Positions 350-60,415 of a stretch of 64,000 nt of DNA are shown here, piece by piece (the stretch's first letter is position 1; every line of letters begins with the position of its first letter). Position numbers and translations under genes: made by a program. Where the stretch lies: contig JBAMJV010001781.1 in assembly GCA_037951105.1 (NCBI GenBank), positions 1 to 64,000 on the forward strand. Reading direction: 5' to 3'. The stretch is from Echinarachnius parma (taxonomy: Eukaryota; Echinodermata; Echinoidea; Clypeasteroida; Echinarachniidae). The notes below the pieces were generated by a model. That model did not search any database. It was not told the DNA's origin and saw only the letters and a list, made by a program, of their open reading frames with translations.

Positions 350-1512
350 CAGGGGCGTCGATCCGTTTTTTTGTGATTGGGGGGGGGGGCGAAATTTGAA
401 GAAAAACAATTCCAGAGTGACCACTAAGAGCCTAAAAGCCCCACATTGGCATGCCCGACATTGGCATGCCCGGAAGTTTTATTATGCGCTCATTGAAATT
501 GTCTTAATGGCTCGAAGACCTGACTCGATGCTCGATGGTCGATGCTCGATGACCTTGGGGGGCATCCACATTTGGGGACAATAATGGGGGTTTCAGATTT
601 CAGACATGTGCAACTCCTATCATGGGTGTTAAAATTGTATAAAATAGTGAACCTACTCGTAACGTATTTTTAAAGGGCACAGCGAGGAAAAGATTGAGCC
701 TTGCATATGAGATGGATCCACGTGATCCTGTATACTATAGAGCCATCGATATAGTCTATGGCATTGGGCTCCCATGAAACTAAGCAAGGGCGGCAACAAC
801 TTCTCAAAAGTGGAGGAGAGACATTGCGAGGAAGCGAAGCGACCGAGCGGGGGAGGGTGTGGGAGGGGGTGTCCCCCTCCCACAGTAGTGAGCTTTTGTA
901 TTTTTGGGCGTGAAATTGTGCGATTTGGTGCACACCTGAGACAGAAATTTAACGTAATATGAAGTATATAAGTATGGAACCAAACATACATAATGACAAA
1001 TGGAGGGGGACAATCTCCTCCACTTTCAAATGTGGGGGGACATGATATTCCAATTTGATTTGCGTTCAGCGCATATGGACCGAATTGACTGAAAGATAAT
1101 TATATTTCAGATTATTTTATTTTCTGTGACGGTGTGCTATCTATAGATGAGGGTTTAATAAACTTCGTTTGAGGTGTGCGTTTGAGAAATTACACTGCCC
1201 AACACATTTAGAAAGGTGAGTTCCCGCAACCAAAATGAAACTTGCAATATGAGAAACTGTATGCGCGCAAAAAGGAGATTTACAGTCTTTTTCAAACTAA
1301 AAAACGGCTATTTTGAAGATTAATTATTGATAAATGTGTCTTTCCCCCTCTTTGGCATTATATCACTCGATTTTTTTTCTTCCTCATTTTCGGAAATTAT
1401 TGGGGGGGGGGGGCGAAATTATATGTTCGCCCCCCCCCCCCCCCCCAATATTTTCATGGGGGGCGACCGCCCCCCTGCCCCTCCCCCCCCCCCCCCCGGA
1501 TCGACGCCCCTG
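350..1512. mobile_element. Putative hAT-like element with CAGGGGCGTCGATCC ends
   Basis: The left end reads CAGGGGCGTCGATCC at 350 and the right end is its complement, finishing CCCCTG at 1512. Flanks GTATAAAC (342-349) and GTATACAA (1513-1520) agree at six of eight positions, as expected for a decayed 8-bp hAT target duplication. Both ends carry G or C runs next to a GGGGGCGAAAT motif. The interior has no transposase-like frame. It could instead be two solo ends; the family assignment is inference. Confidence 0.45.
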
Positions 1513-1846
1513 GTATACAATTAAACAACAACAACAATTAAAACAAAAACAATTTGTACCAAAAATGCAAATTACACAACAACAACAAAACACTAACTAT
1601 TTACAAAATTCTAAATCACTTTACAAGGGGAAAAACAAAACAAAATATGCTTTATCAATTCTCCCCCCCCCCCCCCCCCCCCAGGATCGGCGCCCCTGGT
1701 ATACAATTAAACAACAACAACAATTAAAACAAAAACAATTTGTACCAAAATGCAAATTACACAACAACAACAAAACACTAACTATTTACAAATTCTAAAT
1801 CACTTTACAAGGGGAAAAACAAAACAAAATATGCTTTATCAATTCT
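1494..1846 (+). repeat. Two-copy tandem duplication bounded by poly-C runs
   Basis: The stretch from the hAT-like right end (GGATCGACGCCCCTGG) through an AACAACAACAATTAAAAC-rich segment to ATGCTTTATCAATTCT occurs twice, at about 1497-1660 and 1682-1846, almost identical. Each copy is preceded by a run of 15 or more C. Slippage or template switching at the C runs is a likely cause. Confidence 0.85.
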
Positions 1847-2120
1847 ATTTTTCTAAATATTGAGCAACATACTTTGTTTAACCATACTTGGTAAATTGTT
1901 CCACTTGTTTGCACCACGGTAACTTAAAAAGTGTTTTGGGTCTAGGTATTTCTAACTGAAGAGTTGTGCTTCTTATAATCGATATGCACAATTATTGTTT
2001 AGAAATAAATAATTGATAAATGAGATTAATAGATTGATTATGTAGTTCAAGTATATTTGTGTTATGTAGATGTAATATAGAATTTCTCGGTCAATTTCGT
2101 AAGTTGGCCACACGAATTCA
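1847..2120. other. Unassigned stretch
   Basis: AT-rich DNA with no recognisable gene or repeat. Confidence 0.5.
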
Positions 2121-2128
2121 TTTTATGT

Positions 2129-2316
2129 CAGTGGCGTAGCTACGGGGGGGCAACGGGGGGGCACGTGCCCCCCCCCCCCCCAATAATTTCGAAAAAACAA
2201 TAGAAAACATAAGGGGACATTTTTTGAAAAAACAAAGAAATACATAAGGTGTGCCCCCCAATAATTTTCGTGCCCCCCCCCCCCCCCCCAATCAGTCCGA
2301 CCACGCTACGCCACTG
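2129..2316. mobile_element. 188-bp hAT-type MITE with 8-bp target duplication
   Basis: Inverted ends CAGTGGCGTAGC and GCTACGCCACTG are flanked by perfect 8-bp direct repeats TTTTATGT at 2121-2128 and 2317-2324. An 8-bp duplication is the hAT signature. The interior consists of G runs followed by C runs, so the element can fold on itself, and it encodes nothing. Confidence 0.9.
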
Positions 2317-2494
2317 TTTTATGTGCATTCAATTTCGCCGATTTTGTCACCGCAGCTGTATTTTGCAGTTCAAATTCGTTTTTTAGCATTCGAATTCATA
2401 TAACGATCATTCGAAAACATTTTGCTTGCATTTGATTTAAAACGTGTTTCTATTTCGTAAAATTGTCATTCAATTTAAAGCGAGAAAATTCGTG

Positions 2495-2580
2495 ATTACG
2501 TAATAATAATAATAATAATAAGGTATTTATAACGCGCATATCACATAGATATGTCGCTATGCGCTGTAAGAAATTGAAAT
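2495..2580 (-). repeat. SINE/LINE 3' tail-like fragment
   Basis: Read on the minus strand, this resembles GTAAAGCGC...GCGCGTTATAAAT followed by an ATT repeat. The same layout is seen clearly at 9690-9775. Tails of this type are common to short retroposons of many invertebrates. Confidence 0.5.
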
Positions 2581-2916
2581 AGAATTAGAAAGAAATGTTC
2601 AGCATACTGCTAAACCGTAATACCGCCTTCCGTGAAATCCGTTGGCGAAATTGAATGCAAATAGCGTGTTTTTTAAATTGAATGCTAAAAGAAGAGCTAA
2701 ATCGTATGAACAAAATGCAATTTTGAACCACAATTGCAAGCCTTCAGCTCAATTTCGCGAAATTGAATGACACGCTTATCAAAACGAATGATAAGCTTAC
2801 GAAATTGGCCGAGAAAACCTATATATTCTAAATTGTCCGCCAGTAGATGTCAAATTTGTATGTTTTTTTAATGTTATTCGTAGATCTTCTTCTTAGTTTT
2901 GTGTATTTCTGTGTTG
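2581..2916. other. Unassigned stretch
   Basis: AT-rich, with recurring short phrases such as GAAATTGAATG but no clear unit and no coding potential. Confidence 0.4.
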
Positions 2917-3015
2917 TTTTTTTTTTTTTTTTTTTTTTTGGGGGGGGGGGGGTTGTTGGGGGGGGGGTAAAATTATGCCCCCCCCCCCCCCCCGTAGCTA
3001 AGCCACTGCATCAGG
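2917..3015. repeat. Poly-T/poly-G/poly-C tract ending in a CAGTGGCGTAGC-family terminus
   Basis: A T run, two G runs and a C run end with GTAGCTAAGCCACTG. This matches the right terminus of the 2129-2316 family with a small insertion. No matching left end was found. Confidence 0.55.
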
Positions 3016-3065
3016 CCTTGATTAATGCTTGCCTGGCATAGCATCAATCAATATATGCATTCATA

Positions 3066-3325
3066 CGATGGCGAAGCTACGGGGGGCGGGGCTGTACCCC
3101 GCTCCCCCCCCAAAAAAACACAAACAAACAAACAAACAAACAAACAAACAAACAAACAAACAAACAAACAAGCAAGCAAACAAACAAACAAACAAACAAA
3201 CAAACAAACAAACAAACAAGCAAACAAACAAACAAACAAACAAACAAACAAACAAACAAACAAAAACAAACAAACAAACAAACAAAAGTGTGGCCCCAAT
3301 CAGTCCGACCACGCTACGACACTGC
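3066..3325. mobile_element. CAGTGGCG-family MITE with expanded AAAC microsatellite
   Basis: The left end is a diverged ATGGCGAAGCTACGGGG. The right end, AATCAGTCCGACCACGCTACG, is shared almost exactly with the 2129-2316 element. The interior is about 165 bp of (AAAC)n with a few AAGC interruptions. The flanks no longer show a clear target duplication. Confidence 0.7.
3120..3287. repeat. (AAAC)n microsatellite
   Basis: About 40 tandem AAAC units with two short AAGC interruptions, inside the MITE at 3066-3325. Long frames reading TNKQ or CLFV repeats here are artefacts of this tract. Confidence 0.97.
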
Positions 3326-5904: not shown

Positions 5905-6867
5905 CTTTTGAGAACAGAACTTGCACAAAAAATGAGAACACGCACTAACGGCTTCTAGGGGCATTATGAAATTGCAAAAGGGATCTACTACACCGAACTG
6001 GGATTTATGGAGGAAAAATAGAAGTTGGACAAGTTTTGTAGGCAGAAAACATAATAAAAACAGAATTGCAAACCAATAATTAAAATTCCCCATTCGAGGG
6101 AGAACTTAGACGGAAGCGTTTGAACTAAAATTTAATTACTAATACAATATATGGTTTACACTTTAAAACAATAATAAATGTTTAACGTATAAAACAATTA
6201 TACTGGATTTAAAGATTACCATTATTACAAATGAAATATTATTGAGTCTGTTGGTAACACTTTGGAGCAATATTAAGTGTTTAGCGTATTTCAACATTTC
6301 ATACAATTATGAAAATTAATATTAAATACTGTTATTGAGAAACATGAAGTGGAGGGGCTCATTACTTAGAACATAATTATGTTGGTATAACAACATGCGA
6401 ATTTGAAGAATAATGTTGATTCGGATTAAAAGATATAAATAAGTAATTCACTATGTGCACTACATACAATTTGACATTAAAACAACGGAGAGGTCTAGGC
6501 AAAAGCTCCTTTTGCACCCCCCCCCCCCCCCCCCCCTCCCATGAAATTGAAGGTAAAAAATGGGTATGACTTAGGATGATGGGGATGATGATATAACTAA
6601 TATATGGGACACATTGACGGTATAGATTACAAAATATCTGGGATCTTTTATTTGGCGTAAGGCGTAACCCCATTAAAATATTTACTTAAATTTTAGAAAT
6701 TAGTTATATTATATATGCGTACGTACGTACGTTTAGTTAATTTTACACAAAAAAACGTTAATAAGTATAACAAACGTCATTAACACAATTGAATTGAATG
6801 ATAAGATAATTATCACAATTCGCATTTGTGTGTACTAGTAATTTACGAGTAATACATGTATTATTGT
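5905..6867. other. Unassigned AT-rich stretch
   Basis: No gene or family recognised. There is a C run at about 6517-6536 and a short (TACG)n at about 6716-6732. Confidence 0.4.
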
Positions 6868-13150: not shown

Positions 13151-13570
13151 CTTTAAAAATGCCAAGTTTGTCGACTTTTGCTGCAAAAATGTTCTTTAAA
13201 TACAGTAGTTCAGGACAATTGTAAATTAAAATACAAATCATAATTTGCAAATTCCATTTACACAATTTATATGTGTAGTAAACATGCACATTTTATGTAC
13301 AGTAAAGTACACATCACTCAGACCTTACGTGATATACTTGTGAGTGCTTCCTAAAAATTTATGATTCATAAGTTTATAAATTGTTTACTTTGTCATAAAT
13401 TTCAAGTGGGTTTTAAGTGCTTCCTGATATGTCGCAATGCAATACAAGTATGAAATCTTTGGTATTGACAGATTCTGTTTCAACAGATACTGATTTGTGG
13501 AAGCATGTTATTCAAATTGAACAATTTGTTTTGATTTGTGTCATCTCAGTGATTAATTTGAACATATTTA
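13151..13570. other. Unassigned intronic stretch
   Basis: Nothing recognised apart from a weak repeat of GAGTGCTTCCT (about 13340) and AAGTGCTTCCT (about 13418). Confidence 0.4.
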
Positions 13571-13998
13571 TTAAAGGGTACCACCACCCCAAAATATTAT
13601 TCTTATCAAAGAAAGGTATCATCTTTAGTATTCCATTCCATCAACAAATTCACAAAAATATGTTTCCAGAAAAAATATATAATTGAAAAACGCATCACCA
13701 TTCTGAATGCGGTCTGAATGAAAAGACTACCGGTGTGCAGCAGAGTCAACGTGCTCTGTGCAGAGCGAACGAATCATCCGGGATATACAAACGTACGCGT
13801 GAATAGCATTGGCGCACTCGCAAATGTTTGGCTCGTATGGAACCAGGAAATAGTAGTGGTTCCGTAAGTGGTGGAAATAAATTGCTTTGTTTATGAATTA
13901 CACAACCCTTTGTAAAATGTTGGGTATCTATTTGATATCACAAAACGATACCAAAACATATAATAATGTGTTGTTCTTTGCCTGGTGGTCCCCTTTAA
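13571..13998 (+). mobile_element. TTAA element, family C, copy 1
   Basis: It begins TTAAAGGGTACCACCACCCC and ends GGTGGTCCCCTTTAA. The interior blocks ATATGTTTCCAGAA, GAGCGAACGAATCATCCGGG, CAAACGTACGCGTGAAT, GAACCAGGAAATAGTAGTGG and GATATCACAAAACG recur in the other copies. Non-coding. Confidence 0.9.
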
Positions 13999-20589: not shown

Positions 20590-21062
20590 TTAAAGGGTAC
20601 CACGGTCACTACCACTACCACCACCCAACAATAATATTCTTATTTCATTTAAATAAGAATATTGGTAACATCTTTAGTAGTCCATTCCATCAACAAGTTC
20701 ACAAAAATATGTTTCCAGAATTGTTTTGAATAATTGGAACACGCATCACCATTCTAAAGCATGCGTTCATGGGTCTGCATGTACATGTATGAAGACTACT
20801 TTGTCCAGAGCGAACGAATCATCCGGGATTGTATTCTATTGTCTCCAAACGTACGCGTGAATTTGCCCACTCGCAAATTATGTTTGGCCCGTACGGAACC
20901 AGGAAATAACAGTGGTTCCGTAAGTGGTGGTAATTAAATGCTTTGTTTATGAATTACACAACCATTTGCAAAATGTTGGGTATCTATTTGATATCACAAA
21001 ACGGTACCAAAACATATACATGTAATTATCTGAATTGTTCTTTGCCTGGTGGTTTCCTTTAA
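20590..21062 (+). mobile_element. TTAA element, family C, copy 2
   Basis: TTAAAGGGTACCACGGTCAC to GGTGGTTTCCTTTAA, with the full set of family C interior blocks and a few small insertions. Confidence 0.9.
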
Positions 21063-40990: not shown

Positions 40991-41094
40991 TTTTCGCTGT
41001 AGTCATCCCCTTGTTACATAAACATTCCTTGTGAAGGGACCATCTACAAAGTACGTACACAAAATGTAGCCCCCCTTCCTCCCTGTATACACTA

Positions 41095-44000
41095 GGGCAA
41101 TTCCGTATGAGAGAAGGCAAAAACACCACATCTCAAAGTTGAGCAATCTTCCCTAAATCAAACTGTTATCAATAAAGGAAAACTTGAATTTTAGGAAACT
41201 GAAAACCGTTTGTATATAGCTCTATTGGTTTTTCAAATATTTCTGCTTGAATTGAACAGAAATGTATGACCTTATTTCATAAATCAGCTTCATTTTTATG
41301 AAAATAAAGTGAATCTTTTAATTCAATGACTGTTTCTGCTCATTTTCTCATATTTTCCATATGATATTGTAACAATCACAAATTGTAAAGCATGGGCAGT
41401 AACTTCATTGCATATTTTTTTGAGAATTTTTTTAAATCTATGCACATTTGATCGTAATTCCGTTACGATAAAACGTTTTAAGTTTTTATCAATATCTGAT
41501 TACTTGTTCTTTGGTCATGTCATTGTGAATTCTCTTCCTTCACCATATCCCTAAGAACTTCCAACATAATTTTCTGAAATAATGTCACTACTTTTTCCAA
41601 AAATGGCGTAACAGTATTAGTAATTCCGTTACGTAACGGAATTACACGCACATGGTTTGTAAGGTATTGAATGATATTGCTGAAATTTTTTTTTCTTTCT
41701 TGTTCTGAATGTAGAAATACCCTTTAAATAGCATGTAGCATAACTGTAGCCATGTACGTAGACAATAAGTCATTATACATGTACTGTACAATGTTACTTT
41801 ATGTGACTCATTGCCTCACATGCTTCATATTGCATCAATGGTGATTTAACTAAATTGATACACGATAGATAATTTCTCTCTCCATGAACATAATAGAGAT
41901 GATAATGTTCTATGATACTTCTATCGTTAAATTAGTTTCTAGCAAGACCCACTTGACTGAAATTATGAAGATGCAGCAGATTCATGTTTGTACTTTAGAA
42001 AGGGAACAACAAAAACAATAACACAAATTTAAAAATATCCAGTAATTAGTATCACACTGGTTCTACATTTATTTTCTCACATTAATTTACATTGATGCAT
42101 TATAAGATATAAATCATACATTCAACTTTCAAGGAGATTTAATATTAATAATTGTGTATACATGTAGATTTGATTATCATTGATCAGTTAAGGGCTCATA
42201 ACTCACCATTAATTATGTAAATATGTATTAAACTGAAGCATATAAAATCAAACCTAAATACAGAATAGGCTTCAAGATATTCAAAACTACATATACACAT
42301 AATACAGGCTAAGATATGTTTTATTCATTATCATAAAGTCAGAATTCATTGAGTGTTCAGTGTGCTTCTGTATGCAGATCAAAGAAGATGTACAAAGTAT
42401 TTGCATTTTCAAATGGGAATTCCTAAAGGTGTCTTTCATTTTTTGTAATTCGATATTTATATTTGATATGCCAACTTTTTGTATTTGGATCATACATGTT
42501 TATATCCGATATCATGTATTTCATGGAATGAATTAAAACGCATTCCAAATTAATTTGAGAGTAAATTAAGATCACTTTAAGGATGAATTTTCAAAAGAAT
42601 AATTTCAGAATATATAACAAGAGTTTATACAACAAATCTTGATTTTTTTGTAATTCCGTTACGCACACACATAAATTCAGGATTTGTTCTGGTCCTTATG
42701 TAAGAGTTTAACAATTATTGTTTAACAATGCATACAAAATCTTTACTATAGACTATAAGCAGAAAAATGTAACCAAGAAATTGCATTTTTATGGGTGGAT
42801 TCATGGGTGGATTTCACAGGCGTAATTCCGTTACAGTGACATTCATTTGTTTTAAGGTAATTTCAGAGGTTAAAACAGATCATTTCTGGAAAAAAGATGT
42901 ACCAAATTCAAGTTTGTAACTTACATGATAAGTTTTTATTACCAATGCAGAATTTTTTGAGGTAGCTTTTGCAGAAAATCATTACAAAATTAGTGTTGAA
43001 TAAAAGACCACTTTCCGTTATGATTGTATTTTGGTCTCCTGACGCTACAGTGTTATAGATTTGTACCTCTAGTACCCCTGCCAGTTATTAAAGTTGTAAA
43101 AACTGTGGAAGTGAAAGGAATTTTAAATATGATTAAGAAAACAGAGCTAAAAATCACTTATTTGTCATTCTGTAACAGTGGAATTGCCCATTCACAATGC
43201 ATTTCCATTCACACCTTGATTTTCAATATTTAGGAAGTTTACGAGGCTTTATAGCATTGAAAGTGGAATGATTTGACCTGTTTGTGATTTTAAATTGTTT
43301 AAATGTTTCTTGATATTGATGATGTGCAGTTCTTTAGCATGTCACATAATGTAGGTACTTTTTTTTTTTTTTTTACTTTGGGTTTTTTCACAATTTAACC
43401 ATTTTTCTTGAAGTAAAGGAAAAATTATAAAATGTTGCTATTTTTTTCTTCAAATATGGTTATTATTGTCACATTATTGATTTTTGAAAAGTATTGAAGC
43501 TAAAATGTGAATTCTTTGTTGTTCATGTACCGATTTGTGGAAAAGTTGATTTCACTGCTTAAGTTGTGTAATTCCGTTACACACTTTAGTGGACATAGTT
43601 TCTAGGATTTTTCTTTAATTTAATTGATGCAATCCTTTTTAATTCCTTGCCTACTAATATGAAGCTGAAAATAAACCAAAATAAAGCTGGATTTTAGCAA
43701 TAGTTTTTTCAAATTTCATTCTTAATTGTATTTTGGCCATATTTTCATTCATTTAACACATGACAAGTTTAAATATTGCTTTACAGATGTATCAAATTAT
43801 GGTTTATATTCAAGTGCTAGATAGCCTTGATGTTTGCATTAGTATGTAAGAAAAGTTGAGTGCAAAATAATTGAGTTTACCTTGTAACTGTCAGAGATGT
43901 AATTCCGTTACAATTTTGTGTAATTCCGTTACAGTGCTCTTTTTTCAAAAAAGTGAATTTGTGAACTTATCATTGTGTTGATTATGCACCTAATTGTTCC

Positions 44001-44322
44001 AAAGTGAAGTTGACATTATCAAGATAGAAAAAATACATAAAATCAGTTTCAAAGTGTCTTATATTTCAGAGAAACTTAACGCAAACTTGTAGCAAAAAAA
44101 AACCTCCATTCTCCAGTAATTCCGTTACGGTCACACATATTGGTCTAGTGTGCAACAACACATGGAAGATATAAAATCGTTTCCCTATCATTTTGTAGCC
44201 TGGCTGCCCGTGCAACTTATTTAAGTATCAACATTTACTTAAGTCATGAGAATATTGCGCAGAGAATAAAATAATGAGCAAAATAGGTCTCTGAATGTAA
44301 TTCCGTTATGGTGGAATTGCCC
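41095..44322 (+). mobile_element. 3.2-kb non-coding element with repeated GTAATTCCGTTAC motif
   Basis: The left end GGGCAATTCC (41095-41104) and right end GGAATTGCCC (44313-44322) are perfect 10-bp inverted repeats, each flanked by ACTA (41091-41094 and 44323-44326). Inside, the 13-mer GTAATTCCGTTAC occurs exactly at 41454, 41620, 42650, 42822, 43568, 43899, 43920 and 44116 on the + strand and once on the minus strand (41633-41645). A one-mismatch copy lies at 44297. Several are followed by an RGTGAC-like extension. No frame longer than about 70 codons is present and none resembles a transposase. It is probably a non-autonomous DNA transposon whose motif binds a trans-acting transposase, but no known family is recognised. 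Confidence 0.75.
41620..41645. repeat. Perfect 26-bp palindrome of two GTAATTCCGTTAC motifs
   Basis: The 13-mer is followed directly by its exact reverse complement, with no loop. It lies inside the 41095-44322 element and is the only head-to-head pair there. Confidence 0.97.
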
Positions 44323-44635
44323 ACTAACCTCTTATGCGTACATACTTTTTAGAGGGTCCCAAAGTGTACTCCAGTAAAAGTCAAGTTCCTTTGCAGGGGG
44401 TCAATACGCAATTCTGATGCAAATTATTCCTACTTCCCCCCCACTTTGTTACATATCGAAGGGGAATTCCGTTTGCACAAGTTCTAGTTGTAAAACTGCT
44501 TGTAATTTGTAGCCACATCTAGAATGCAAATTGTTGTACTAGATACATGTAGTAGTATGACCATGATTTACAAGCTATTATGCAGAATTTCCTGGTCATT
44601 GCATGTGCAAATTGTGCAAATTGAACACCAACAAC

Positions 44636-53519: not shown

Positions 53520-54385
53520 CAAAGCCAGACGCTGCCCCTAATAAAACGCTGCTTCTTCCAAAATGGATTATCGACAATAAATCTGAGCTAATTTTAGAGA
53601 TTTCTGTCTTCTATCACTCTCTCTCTCCTTTGCTTTCTTTTCTTTAACGTACAGCACATATTTCTTTCTTTTTCTCTTTCTTCTGCAATTGTATTTATTT
53701 AAAGGGGACCACCAGGCAAAGAACAACACATAATTATATGTTTTGGTACCTTTTTATGATATCAAATAGATACCCAACATTTTGCAAAGGGTTGTGTAAT
53801 TCATAGACAAAGCAATTAATTACCACCACTTACGGAACCACTATTATTTCCTGGTTCCGTACGGGCCAAACGTATGCGAATGCGCCAATGCTATTCACGC
53901 GTACGTTTGGAGACAATAGAATCCCGGACAATTTTTTCGCTCTGGACTATTAAGTAGCCTTCGTACATGCAGACCCATAAACAGCCTCTAATAATAAATA
54001 GACGCTGCTACTTCCAAAATGGATTAATGACGATAAATCCAAGCTAATTTTAGAGATTTCTGTCTATGCACACTCTTTCCTTTTCTCTTAAATGTGTTCT
54101 TTCCCCCCCCCCCCCCCCCCCTCTCTGGCATTTTTGTTTATCAAATATTACTATGCCAGACACTGCCTAGAAAAGCTGCTACTTCCAAAATGGATTATTG
54201 ACAATAAATCCGAGCTAATTTTAGAGATTTCTGTCTATGCTCAGTCTTTCAGTTTCTTTTAAATTTGTTTTATTTTTTCCCTCTCCCTCTCCCCCTCTCT
54301 CCCTCTCTCTGGCATTTTTATTTATTAGATATTATTATGCCAGACACGGCCTCTAATAAACGCTGCTTCTTCCAAAAAGGATTTT
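53520..54385 (+). repeat. Tandem array, unit about 160-180 bp, four copies
   Basis: CCAGACACTGCCTCTAATAAACGCTGCTTCTTCCAAAATGGATTATTGACAATAAATCCGAGCTAATTTTAGAGATTTCTGTC and a pyrimidine-rich tail recur at about 53526, 53985, 54157 and 54333. The first interval contains the family C insertion. Confidence 0.92.
53699..53980 (-). mobile_element. TTAA element, family C, copy 3 (truncated)
   Basis: TTAAAGGGGACCACCAGGCAAAG starts the copy. The family interior continues to CCGGACAATTTTTTCGCTCTGGAC and TTCGTACATGCAGACCCAT, where it stops. The GGGTGGTGGTACCCTTTAA half is missing. Confidence 0.88.
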
Positions 54386-59611: not shown

Positions 59612-60029
59612 TTAAAGGGGACCACCAGGCAAAGAACAACACATTATTATATGTTTTGGTACCGTTTTGTGATATCAAATAGATACCCAACATTTTGCAA
59701 AGGGTTGTGTAATTCATAAACAAAGCAATTAATTTCCACCACTTACGGAACCACTACTATTTCCTGGTTCCATACGGGCCAAACATTTGCGAGTGCGCCA
59801 ATGCTATTCATGCGTACTACGTTTGTAGACAATAGAATCCCGGGCGATCCGTTCGCTCTGCACACATTATATTAGTCTTCATGAACGCATGCTTTAGAAT
59901 GGTGATGCGTTTTCCAATTATATATTTTTTCTGGAAACAAATTTTTGTGAACTTGTTGATGGAATGGAATACCAAAGATGTTACCTTTCTTTGATAAGAA
60001 TATTATTTTTGGGTGGTGGTACCCTTTAA
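59612..60029 (-). mobile_element. TTAA element, family C, copy 4 (complete)
   Basis: TTAAAGGGGACCACCAGGC to GGGTGGTGGTACCCTTTAA, complete and close to copy 1. Its right TTAA is the left TTAA of the next element. Confidence 0.94.
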
Positions 60030-60415
60030 AGGGACTAAGTAACATTGTCCAAATCCTCAAAATAAAATTTTAATTATAGCGGTTCCCTCGTACCTTGTTG
60101 TATTCGTATTACCAATAAAATCATGGGACAGGTTTTGGTTTTTCAAATTTACCTTTTGTTACAAAGATATGTACTACGATCGAAGTATTCAGATAAGAAA
60201 AACTACCCTGGAGTTTTTCTTACCGTGTACAAAGTGAGTGCAGTGAATTAGTGACTATCACTTTGCATTTTCGCTCATTACTTGGCCATGCAATGTCCAT
60301 TTGACTTGACATTTTCACACAATACCCTGTGGACATATGAGATAACAACAATATACATTGCATCAACCATTCATCACTTTTTGCACATGTCAACACAGTT
60401 ACTAGATCCCTTTAA
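60026..60415 (+). mobile_element. TTAA element, family B, abutting family C
   Basis: TTAAAGGGACTAAGTAACATTG to TTACTAGATCCCTTTAA, complete. It shares four bases (60026-60029) with the family C copy on its left. Confidence 0.94.

What the first reader, a model, noticed from the sequence alone, without database searches (positions are those of the whole stretch)
41095..44322. A 3.2-kb non-coding element with nine exact GTAATTCCGTTAC sites
Perfect 10-bp inverted ends (GGGCAATTCC) and an ACTA duplication bound a 3.2-kb AT-rich block with no plausible protein. Inside, one 13-mer occurs nine times exactly and once with one mismatch, against a chance expectation far below one. Several sites continue with RGTGAC, and the terminal GGGCAATTCCG shares AATTCCG with the motif. 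This suggests one DNA-binding protein recognises both ends and internal sites. I know no named superfamily with this combination. Most small non-autonomous elements here are under 1 kb, so a 3.2-kb empty element studded with sites is unusual. Host-factor binding or a satellite-like origin are alternatives.
Basis: partly seen in the sequence, partly recalled or inferred. Interest (0 to 1): 0.75.

Follow-up and report, generated by a model that had tools for sequence, protein, structure and literature searches.

The report
Jumping gene with swappable address sites
This 3.2-kb stretch is one copy of an abundant animal DNA transposon that encodes no recognisable protein of its own; relatives in the same genome keep the same ends and put a short repeated 'address' site at much the same positions, but different relatives spell that address differently, which suggests that each kind has its own matching DNA-binding protein.

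Summary
Window 41095-44322 is a 3228-bp non-autonomous TIR DNA transposon (TIR GGGCAATTCC, TSD ACTA) in metazoan DNA. The 13-mer occurs 6,800 times in the 1.2-Gb genome (reversed-word control 19); the element's left-end 24-mer occurs 632 times. All 19 elements with both ends in fetched sequence have an exact 4-bp TSD.

The interest lies in the relatives. They keep the TIR and the site positions (left end: 360; right end: 26, ~205, ~404, ~421), but spell their sites differently: GTAATTCCGTTAC (fam1, fam2), GTCCTTCCGTTAC (fam3, 8,935 places), GTCACGCTGTTAC (fam5, 2,749 places). In 18 elements scanned, none carries another type's exact word. Between fam1/fam2 and fam3/fam5 spacer similarity is hardly detectable, yet site spacing agrees. 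So TIR and array are probably read by separate DNA-binding parts, and the array-reader switches specificity by family, as proposed for CACTA subterminal repeats and shown for Arabidopsis VANC.

The right end is duplicated in tandem inside fam1 and inside fam3. No autonomous partner or transposase was found, so the superfamily and the reader protein stay inferred.

The parts
41095..44322 (+). Non-autonomous TIR DNA transposon, 'fam1' copy, 3228 bp
   Evidence: boundaries, 44 other copies; one search left-end 24-mer at 632 places in the genome
41095..41104 (+). Left terminal inverted repeat GGGCAATTCC
   Evidence: identical in the 8 other copies aligned, which were picked by exact ends
44313..44322 (-). 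Right terminal inverted repeat GGGCAATTCC
   Evidence: identical in the 8 other copies aligned, which were picked by exact ends
41091..41094 (.). Target-site duplication ACTA, left copy
44323..44326 (.). Target-site duplication ACTA, right copy
41454..41466 (+). Site 1, GTAATTCCGTTAC, position 360 from the left end
41620..41632 (+). Site 2, position 526
41633..41645 (-). Site 3, position 539, inverted, abutting site 2
41620..41645 (.). 26-bp perfect palindrome made of sites 2 and 3
   Evidence: self-match 526-551 inverted, 100%
42650..42662 (+). Site in the inner (duplicated) right-end region; 7 of the 9 aligned copies read T at its position 8 (GTAATTCTGTTAC-like)
42822..42834 (+). Site in the inner right-end region, 368 from the internal terminus
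   Evidence: coordinates
43164..43176 (+). Decayed inner site GTCATTCTGTAAC, 26 from the internal terminus
   Evidence: 3 mismatches
43180..43189 (-). Internal copy of the terminus (GGAATTGCCC on +), no adjacent ACTA; exact in the window and 4 of 8 other aligned copies, one change in the other 4
43060..43189 (+). Old tandem duplicate of the right end (64% over 134 columns against 44192-44322)
43568..43580 (+). Site, 755 from the right end
43899..43911 (+). Site, 424 from the right end
43920..43932 (+). Site, 403 from the right end
44116..44128 (+). Site, 207 from the right end
44297..44309 (+). Terminal-proximal site, 26 from the right end, GTAATTCCGTTAT (1 mismatch)

Best explanation
The element is one of several hundred copies of a non-autonomous cut-and-paste DNA transposon. 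It was presumably mobilised in trans by proteins of an autonomous relative that was not found. Shown: exact ends, 4-bp target duplications, high copy number, a site array at near-fixed distances from both ends, and relatives with the same ends and array positions but another site spelling. Tandem duplication of the right end, seen in fam1 and in fam3, adds sites and inner termini.
For: Genome: GTAATTCCGTTAC 6,800 places, control 19; GTCCTTCCGTTAC 8,935, control 44; GTCACGCTGTTAC 2,749, control 114. TSD exact in 16 of 16 plus 3 of 3. A fam3 nested in a fam1 copy gives an empty site at window 41509-41512. Positions: left 360 in fam1, fam2, fam3, fam5 (361 in two of the fam1 copies, absent in one); right 26 / 204-210 / 402-407 / 416-424 in the representatives. 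fam5 in the genome: of 20 groups listed, 8 have all seven sites, with spacings 166, 20, variable middle, 14, 197-198, 180; 12 are incomplete. Of 18 elements none carries another type's exact word. Spacers: fam1-fam2 z 3.6-5.4 and fam3-fam5 z 0.6-5.8; between the two pairs z -0.8 to 1.7 in 11 of 12 comparisons (exception fam2-fam3 R27-200, z 3.7). Summed site offsets are 13-19 bp in the four cross-pair comparisons against random means of 387-517; as low in 0, 0, 0 and 3 of 200,000 draws each. fam1 against fam2 right ends: sites 64 of 65 identical, outside sites 414 of 661. Among fam1 copies sites match the window at 861 of 871 cells against 19,460 of 20,423 outside, leaving out L022, which lacks three sites.
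Against: No autonomous element or transposase was found, and no binding was tested. The last 420 bp of fam1 and fam2 against fam3, sites included, still score above shuffles (230 and 238, null mean about 154, null maximum 200.5 and 195), so homology between the groups is not wholly lost and some positional agreement may be plain descent. Individual copies tolerate indels (fam2 L016: 414/394 instead of 424/404) and site loss (12 of 20 fam5 groups incomplete). The inner terminus is exact in only 4 of 8 other fam1 copies, so it is not shown to be functional. With L022 kept, sites in fam1 copies are 971 of 1001 against 22,203 of 23,412, a small difference. fam5 rests on one full copy read plus listed positions. 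The null is uniform placement, leaves out sites beyond 560 bp, and counts two one-mismatch sites.
Confidence: 0.67

Rival explanations
1. VANC-like anti-silencing: the arrays are landing sites for an element-encoded protein that removes silencing, not for transposition. Families diverge in motif as VANC21 and VANC6 targets do.
For: PMC5735166 (abstract, section 9 and passages read): related TEs in one genome carry different short motifs (YAGTATTAY against AGTTGTCC/AGTTGTAC) in non-coding regions, bound by element-encoded VANC, and the motifs evolve together. Our arrays are also non-coding, also family-specific, and partly multiplied by tandem duplication.
Against: Our sites are few, at near-fixed distances from the ends, and include one 26 bp from the terminus. 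VANC targets are described as often forming tandem repeats that vary between related TEs. A geometry kept where spacer similarity is hardly detectable fits a complex at the ends better.
Confidence: 0.14
2. A host DNA-binding factor reads the sites (transcription or silencing), and the elements exploit it.
For: Short, partly dyad-symmetric words; two sites abut as a palindrome.
Against: Three spellings, each exclusive to its type among 18 elements, at the same positions. One host factor would not follow family boundaries; several related host factors cannot be excluded.
Confidence: 0.09
3. The arrays have no present function: copies of a few old repeats that spread by gene conversion or duplication inside the ends, positions kept by descent alone.
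For: Right-end duplications exist in fam1 and fam3; residual homology of whole right ends between groups.
Against: Spacers diverged to about 60-64% between duplicates and families while most sites stay near-identical; the sites of an element share one spelling although the spacers between them do not resemble each other.
Confidence: 0.06

Closest known systems
CACTA/EnSpm elements (En/Spm TNPA motif; soybean Tgmt against Tgm1, PMC2613891, passages read)
   Same: Conserved TIR plus subterminal copies of a short motif; motif differs by 6 positions between subfamilies in one genome; that paper proposes co-evolution of repeats and binding protein. Length of the region is alike (24 repeats in 732 bp at the right border of Tgmt).
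   Different: Here the TIR starts GGGCAATTCC, not CACTA, and the TSD is 4 bp, not 3. Here there are about 7-10 sites, widely spaced at near-fixed positions, not a dense array. No TNP2-type transposase seen.
Arabidopsis VANDAL/VANC system (PMC5735166, abstract, section 9 and passages read)
   Same: Family-specific short motifs in non-coding regions of related DNA TEs, multiplied partly by tandem duplication, changing together.
   Different: VANC targets often form tandem repeats that vary among copies; ours sit at near-fixed positions. VANDALs are MULE-type elements (recalled: about 9-bp TSD).
MULEs with tandem TIRs (PMC3310237, abstract and discussion read)
   Same: An additional inner terminus carried along in amplified copies.
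   Different: There the amplified families have both ends duplicated and elements with one solo extra TIR rarely amplify; here only the right end is duplicated, in a family with 632 exact left ends.
Sola2 (PMC3627910, passages read)
   Same: 4-bp TSD with short TIRs.
   Different: Described there with AT-rich AWWT targets; here 6 of 19 TSDs fit AWWT. The transposase could not be compared.
hAT elements with subterminal transposase-binding repeats, e.g. Hermes (PMC10368747, start of abstract in a search listing only)
   Same: Multiple contacts of a multimeric transposase with the transposon end.
   Different: hAT TSD is 8 bp (recalled); here 4 bp.

Membership tests
TIR cut-and-paste DNA transposon (non-autonomous) | Inverted terminal repeats and constant-length target duplication at unrelated loci | tested here: met
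   19 of 19 elements with both exact ends in fetched sequence have an exact 4-bp TSD; loci with only one end seen were not counted
TIR cut-and-paste DNA transposon (non-autonomous) | Empty site without the element | tested here: met
   For the relative fam3, nested in fam1 copy L010; the window copy of fam1 is uninterrupted there. Not found for fam1 itself
TIR cut-and-paste DNA transposon (non-autonomous) | Autonomous partner with transposase | tested here: inconclusive
   Only a decayed fragment in fam2 (at least 151 matches) without a significant Pfam match; no full gene found; several long candidates unread
CACTA/EnSpm | TIR beginning CACTA/CACTG and 2-3-bp TSD (recalled; 13-bp CACTA TIR and 3-bp TSD for Tgmt in PMC2613891) | tested here: not met
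   TIR GGGCAATTCC, TSD 4 bp
CACTA/EnSpm | Subterminal repeated motif | tested here: met
Sola2 | 4-bp AT-rich TSD (AWWT in PMC3627910) | tested here: inconclusive
   4 bp in 19 of 19; outer bases A/T in 19 of 19, but AWWT in 6 of 19
Sola2 | Sola2 transposase | not testable with these tools
   no autonomous copy and no Sola reference held
piggyBac / Kolobok / Sola3 | TTAA target (recalled) | tested here: not met
   no TTAA among 19 TSDs
hAT / P / MULE | 8-10-bp TSD (recalled) | tested here: not met
   longest exact flank match is 4 bp in 16 of 16
VANDAL/VANC | Family-specific motifs in non-coding TE DNA bound by an element-encoded protein | tested here: inconclusive
   motif family-specificity met in 18 elements; the protein was not found

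The most novel reading that the evidence does not exclude
An undescribed group, perhaps a superfamily, of animal DNA transposons with two-key recognition: a constant TIR for cleavage and an array of address sites at near-fixed positions whose spelling switches as a whole between families, giving mutually exclusive transposase-element pairs in one genome, with site geometry conserved where sequence similarity of the spacers is hardly detectable.
Probability: 0.35. Interest if true: 0.8.

Novelty: new variant of a known kind. Interest (0 to 1): 0.64.

Why it matters
It offers a natural series for an open question: how a protein and many dispersed DNA sites change specificity together. Here there are three spellings at the same positions, thousands of sites each, and diverged spacers as an internal control, all in one genome. 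The reader protein's specificity code could be inferred by comparing the autonomous elements, once found, and tested directly by swapping site words. It also bears on how non-autonomous families avoid or share transposases, and on how large non-coding elements come to hundreds of copies.

Tried and rejected
Coding content of the element: no Pfam match in six frames. Published mention: no paper in the held library contains GTAATTCCGTTAC; GGGCAATTCC gives 38 papers, of which 20 were listed, none on a transposon by title. Public viral contigs: GTAATTCCGTTACRGTSAC found one viral contig, judged chance on sight of 1,424 bases around it; two sites within 30 bp gave none; a 92-aa fragment gave no relative. 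Rfam and tRNA scans of the window: none.

Autonomous copy: the 8908-bp fam3 copy C471 looks like a satellite expansion, not a gene; C3368, C8041 and C5173 hold the fam2 fragment but no frame that I recognised; the part read of C11429 (8800-11850) shows no long frame; C5825, C3860, C2278, C1832 and C588 show nested elements, repeats or, in C2278, a frame that looks like a retroelement by eye. Pfam was run on L060 1552-6500 (none) and on L059 1-4900, where the hits look like repeat artefacts; the rest of these loci was not scanned. C61, C496, C559, C11384, C13530 and the rest of C11429 could not be read.

A count of intermediate words (GTMMTTCCGTTAC) and of a possible fourth word seen once (C4066) did not complete.

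Rejected: 'one protein reads TIR and sites through AATTCCG' (TIR constant while sites change); a composite of two side-by-side elements at 43189 (no TSD there, and the 9 aligned fam1 copies all carry that stretch).

Full report
WHAT WAS CHECKED. The element at 41095-44322 is as described: nine exact GTAATTCCGTTAC and one with one mismatch, none elsewhere in the 64 kb, perfect 10-bp TIRs, ACTA on both sides, GC 29.7%, no Pfam match in six frames. In 300 third-order simulations no 13-mer exceeded three copies. The claim that several sites continue with RGTGAC is not right: one of ten does (42822). The window is metazoan to judge by a WW-domain exon near 48.7 kb (ARHGAP39-like by recall).

GENOME. 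The window lies in G000 (1,200,326,526 bases in 14,790 contigs). The 13-mer occurs at 6,800 places, the word read backwards at 19. I fetched 14 regions covering clusters among the first 100 places listed. Nine of the 14 loci hold copies of this element ('fam1', my label), which match the window copy at 84-98% over aligned pieces and end exactly at the TIRs. The fam1 left-end 24-mer occurs at 632 places. All 16 elements with both ends tabulated, and 3 of 3, have an exact 4-bp TSD, outer bases always A or T; loci where only one end was in the fetched sequence were not counted, and elements were recognised by exact TIRs. A fam3 element sits inside the fam1 copy of L010; the window's fam1 copy is uninterrupted at that point (41509-41512) and the two pieces of L010 overlap by exactly four bases. 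No empty site was found for fam1 itself.

RELATIVES. fam2 (3.9-4.5 kb in the four full copies; 155 exact right ends) shares 29 bp at the left and about 55 bp at the right end with fam1, besides shorter inner matches near the right end, at BLAST sensitivity. fam3: 772 exact left ends and 1,334 right ends of the pattern, the 100 listed all fam3-like; of those 100, 60 pair with a left end within 12 kb: 41 at 2478-2504 bp, 5 at 2135-2153, 5 at 776-782, 9 other lengths up to 8908. fam5 is 1815 bp in the one full copy read (L061). A few fam2-like copies with AGGG next to the TIR (6 of the 7 places, L055 among them) are labelled fam4.

THE ARRAY. The site word differs between kinds. fam1, fam2 and fam4: GTAATTCCGTTAC. 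fam3: GTCCTTCCGTTAC, nine exact in each of three copies. fam5: GTCACGCTGTTAC, six exact plus one with one mismatch. Among 18 elements none carries another type's exact word. Genome-wide the second and third words occur 8,935 times (control 44) and 2,749 times (control 114). A search for right ends with C or T after TAAC gave only 10: eight are one-letter and one a two-letter variant of the known words, one (C4066) is a possible fourth word. Other classes of variants were not searched.

POSITIONS. In the family representatives the first site from the left starts at 360 in all four main families, the second at 515-526; from the right end sites start at 26, 204-210, 402-407, 416-424. Single copies deviate: 361 in L013 and L020, missing in L022, 414/394 in L016. 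The 100 places listed for the fam5 word fall into 20 groups; 8 have all seven sites with spacings 166, 20, middle, 14, 197-198, 180, the middle being 845-3158; the other 12 lack sites, and where spacings can be compared they agree within 5 bp except one pair (157) that fits none. Spacer comparison: fam1-fam2 z 4.9, 5.4, 3.6 and fam3-fam5 z 5.8, 0.6, 3.0 for three subterminal regions; the 12 cross-pair values run from -0.8 to 1.7 with one exception (fam2-fam3, 3.7); mid-element controls run from -0.6 to 1.6. Site offsets between groups sum to 13-19 bp, against random means of 387-517 (uniform placement, terminal site held fixed, sites beyond 560 bp left out). Whole 420-bp right ends of fam1 and fam2 against fam3, sites included, still score above shuffles, so common descent is clear; what is striking is that spacing outlasted most of the spacer sequence.

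INNER TERMINUS. 43180-43189 repeats the terminus and closes a region that aligns with the right end (64% over 134 columns; units B and C 1050.5 against null 844.9, sd 47.0, maximum 960 of 100 shuffles). Motif-masked 300-bp pieces gave no such signal above the null maximum, so the relation shows only in longer or unmasked comparisons. fam3 has an analogous inner duplicate, 602 bp upstream, with its own site word and a decayed inner terminus. Outside the sites the duplicates are 60-63% identical. In fam1 the inner parts decay: 42650 reads T at its position 8 in 7 of 9 copies, 43164 is degenerate, and the inner terminus is exact in 4 of 8 other copies.

MECHANISM. Shown: precise insertion, non-coding copies, constant TIR, near-fixed-position arrays with type-specific words. 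CACTA precedent: PMC2613891 reports conserved TIRs and subterminal motifs diverged by 6 positions between soybean subfamilies and proposes co-evolution with TNPA-like proteins (passages). VANC precedent: PMC5735166 notes that accumulation of many motifs is hard to explain by simple substitutions and invokes tandem repeats (section 9); here most sites are not in tandem repeats, so how a whole array changes is open. Both precedents are plant systems.

MEMBERSHIP. CACTA fails on TIR start and TSD length. TTAA and 8-10-bp families fail on TSD. Sola2 is open: 4-bp TSD fits, AWWT holds in 6 of 19, transposase not testable. The only coding trace is a decayed fragment in fam2 (129-aa query, at least 151 matches; the 30 loci fetched for the best matches all carry fam2-type sites or ends), with no significant Pfam relation. 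It may be a remnant of the master or a captured gene piece.

LIMITS. fam5 rests on one full copy. Family labels are mine. The host species is not known.

Noticed in passing
L058 4197-6696 and L061 790-2604: In two fam2-type copies a different family inserted beside an A-type site that looks like the same one (about 760 from the right end): fam3 at the TAGT touching the site in L058, fam5 at the ACAT one base from the other side in L061. The third nested case (L010) is about 43 bp from a site. This may hint at insertion near array sites.
   Followed up: partly
L017 (fam2), L054 2443-2982; at least 151 matches in G000: fam2 elements carry a decayed reading frame (MEDLK.KWVVVQ.CKENNAKKLIGQV.EAVDSNITVK.LKQ) near the left end, without a significant Pfam match; possibly the tail of the lost transposase or a captured exon.
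   Followed up: partly
L057 (C471:37773-46680): A fam3 copy swollen to 8.9 kb by internal repeats between the inner sites and the last 344 bp, ends and TSD intact.
   Followed up: partly
G000 C105, C107, C117, C478, C536: Short fam3 derivatives of 776-782 bp recur (5 of 60 paired), besides 2.14-2.15-kb and 2.5-kb classes; discrete deletion forms that have amplified.
   Followed up: partly
G000:C4066:109797-109822: A single right end reads TAACTCGCGTAC after the TIR, i.e. a possible fourth site word GTACGCGAGTTAC.
   Followed up: no
window 44461-44475: GGGGAATTCCGTTTG, a terminus-like word 139 bp outside the element; not tied to any element here.
   Followed up: no
window 13570-13998, 20616-21062, 53698-53947, 59612-60032: A dispersed repeat shared with the interior of fam2 (positions about 2950-3393 of L014's element), probably a smaller element nested in fam2.
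   Followed up: partly
G000:C16:729-1537: A cluster of GTCCTTCCGTTAC with spacings 196, 392, 14, 194 that differs from the usual fam3 order; maybe another subfamily or a partial copy.
   Followed up: no
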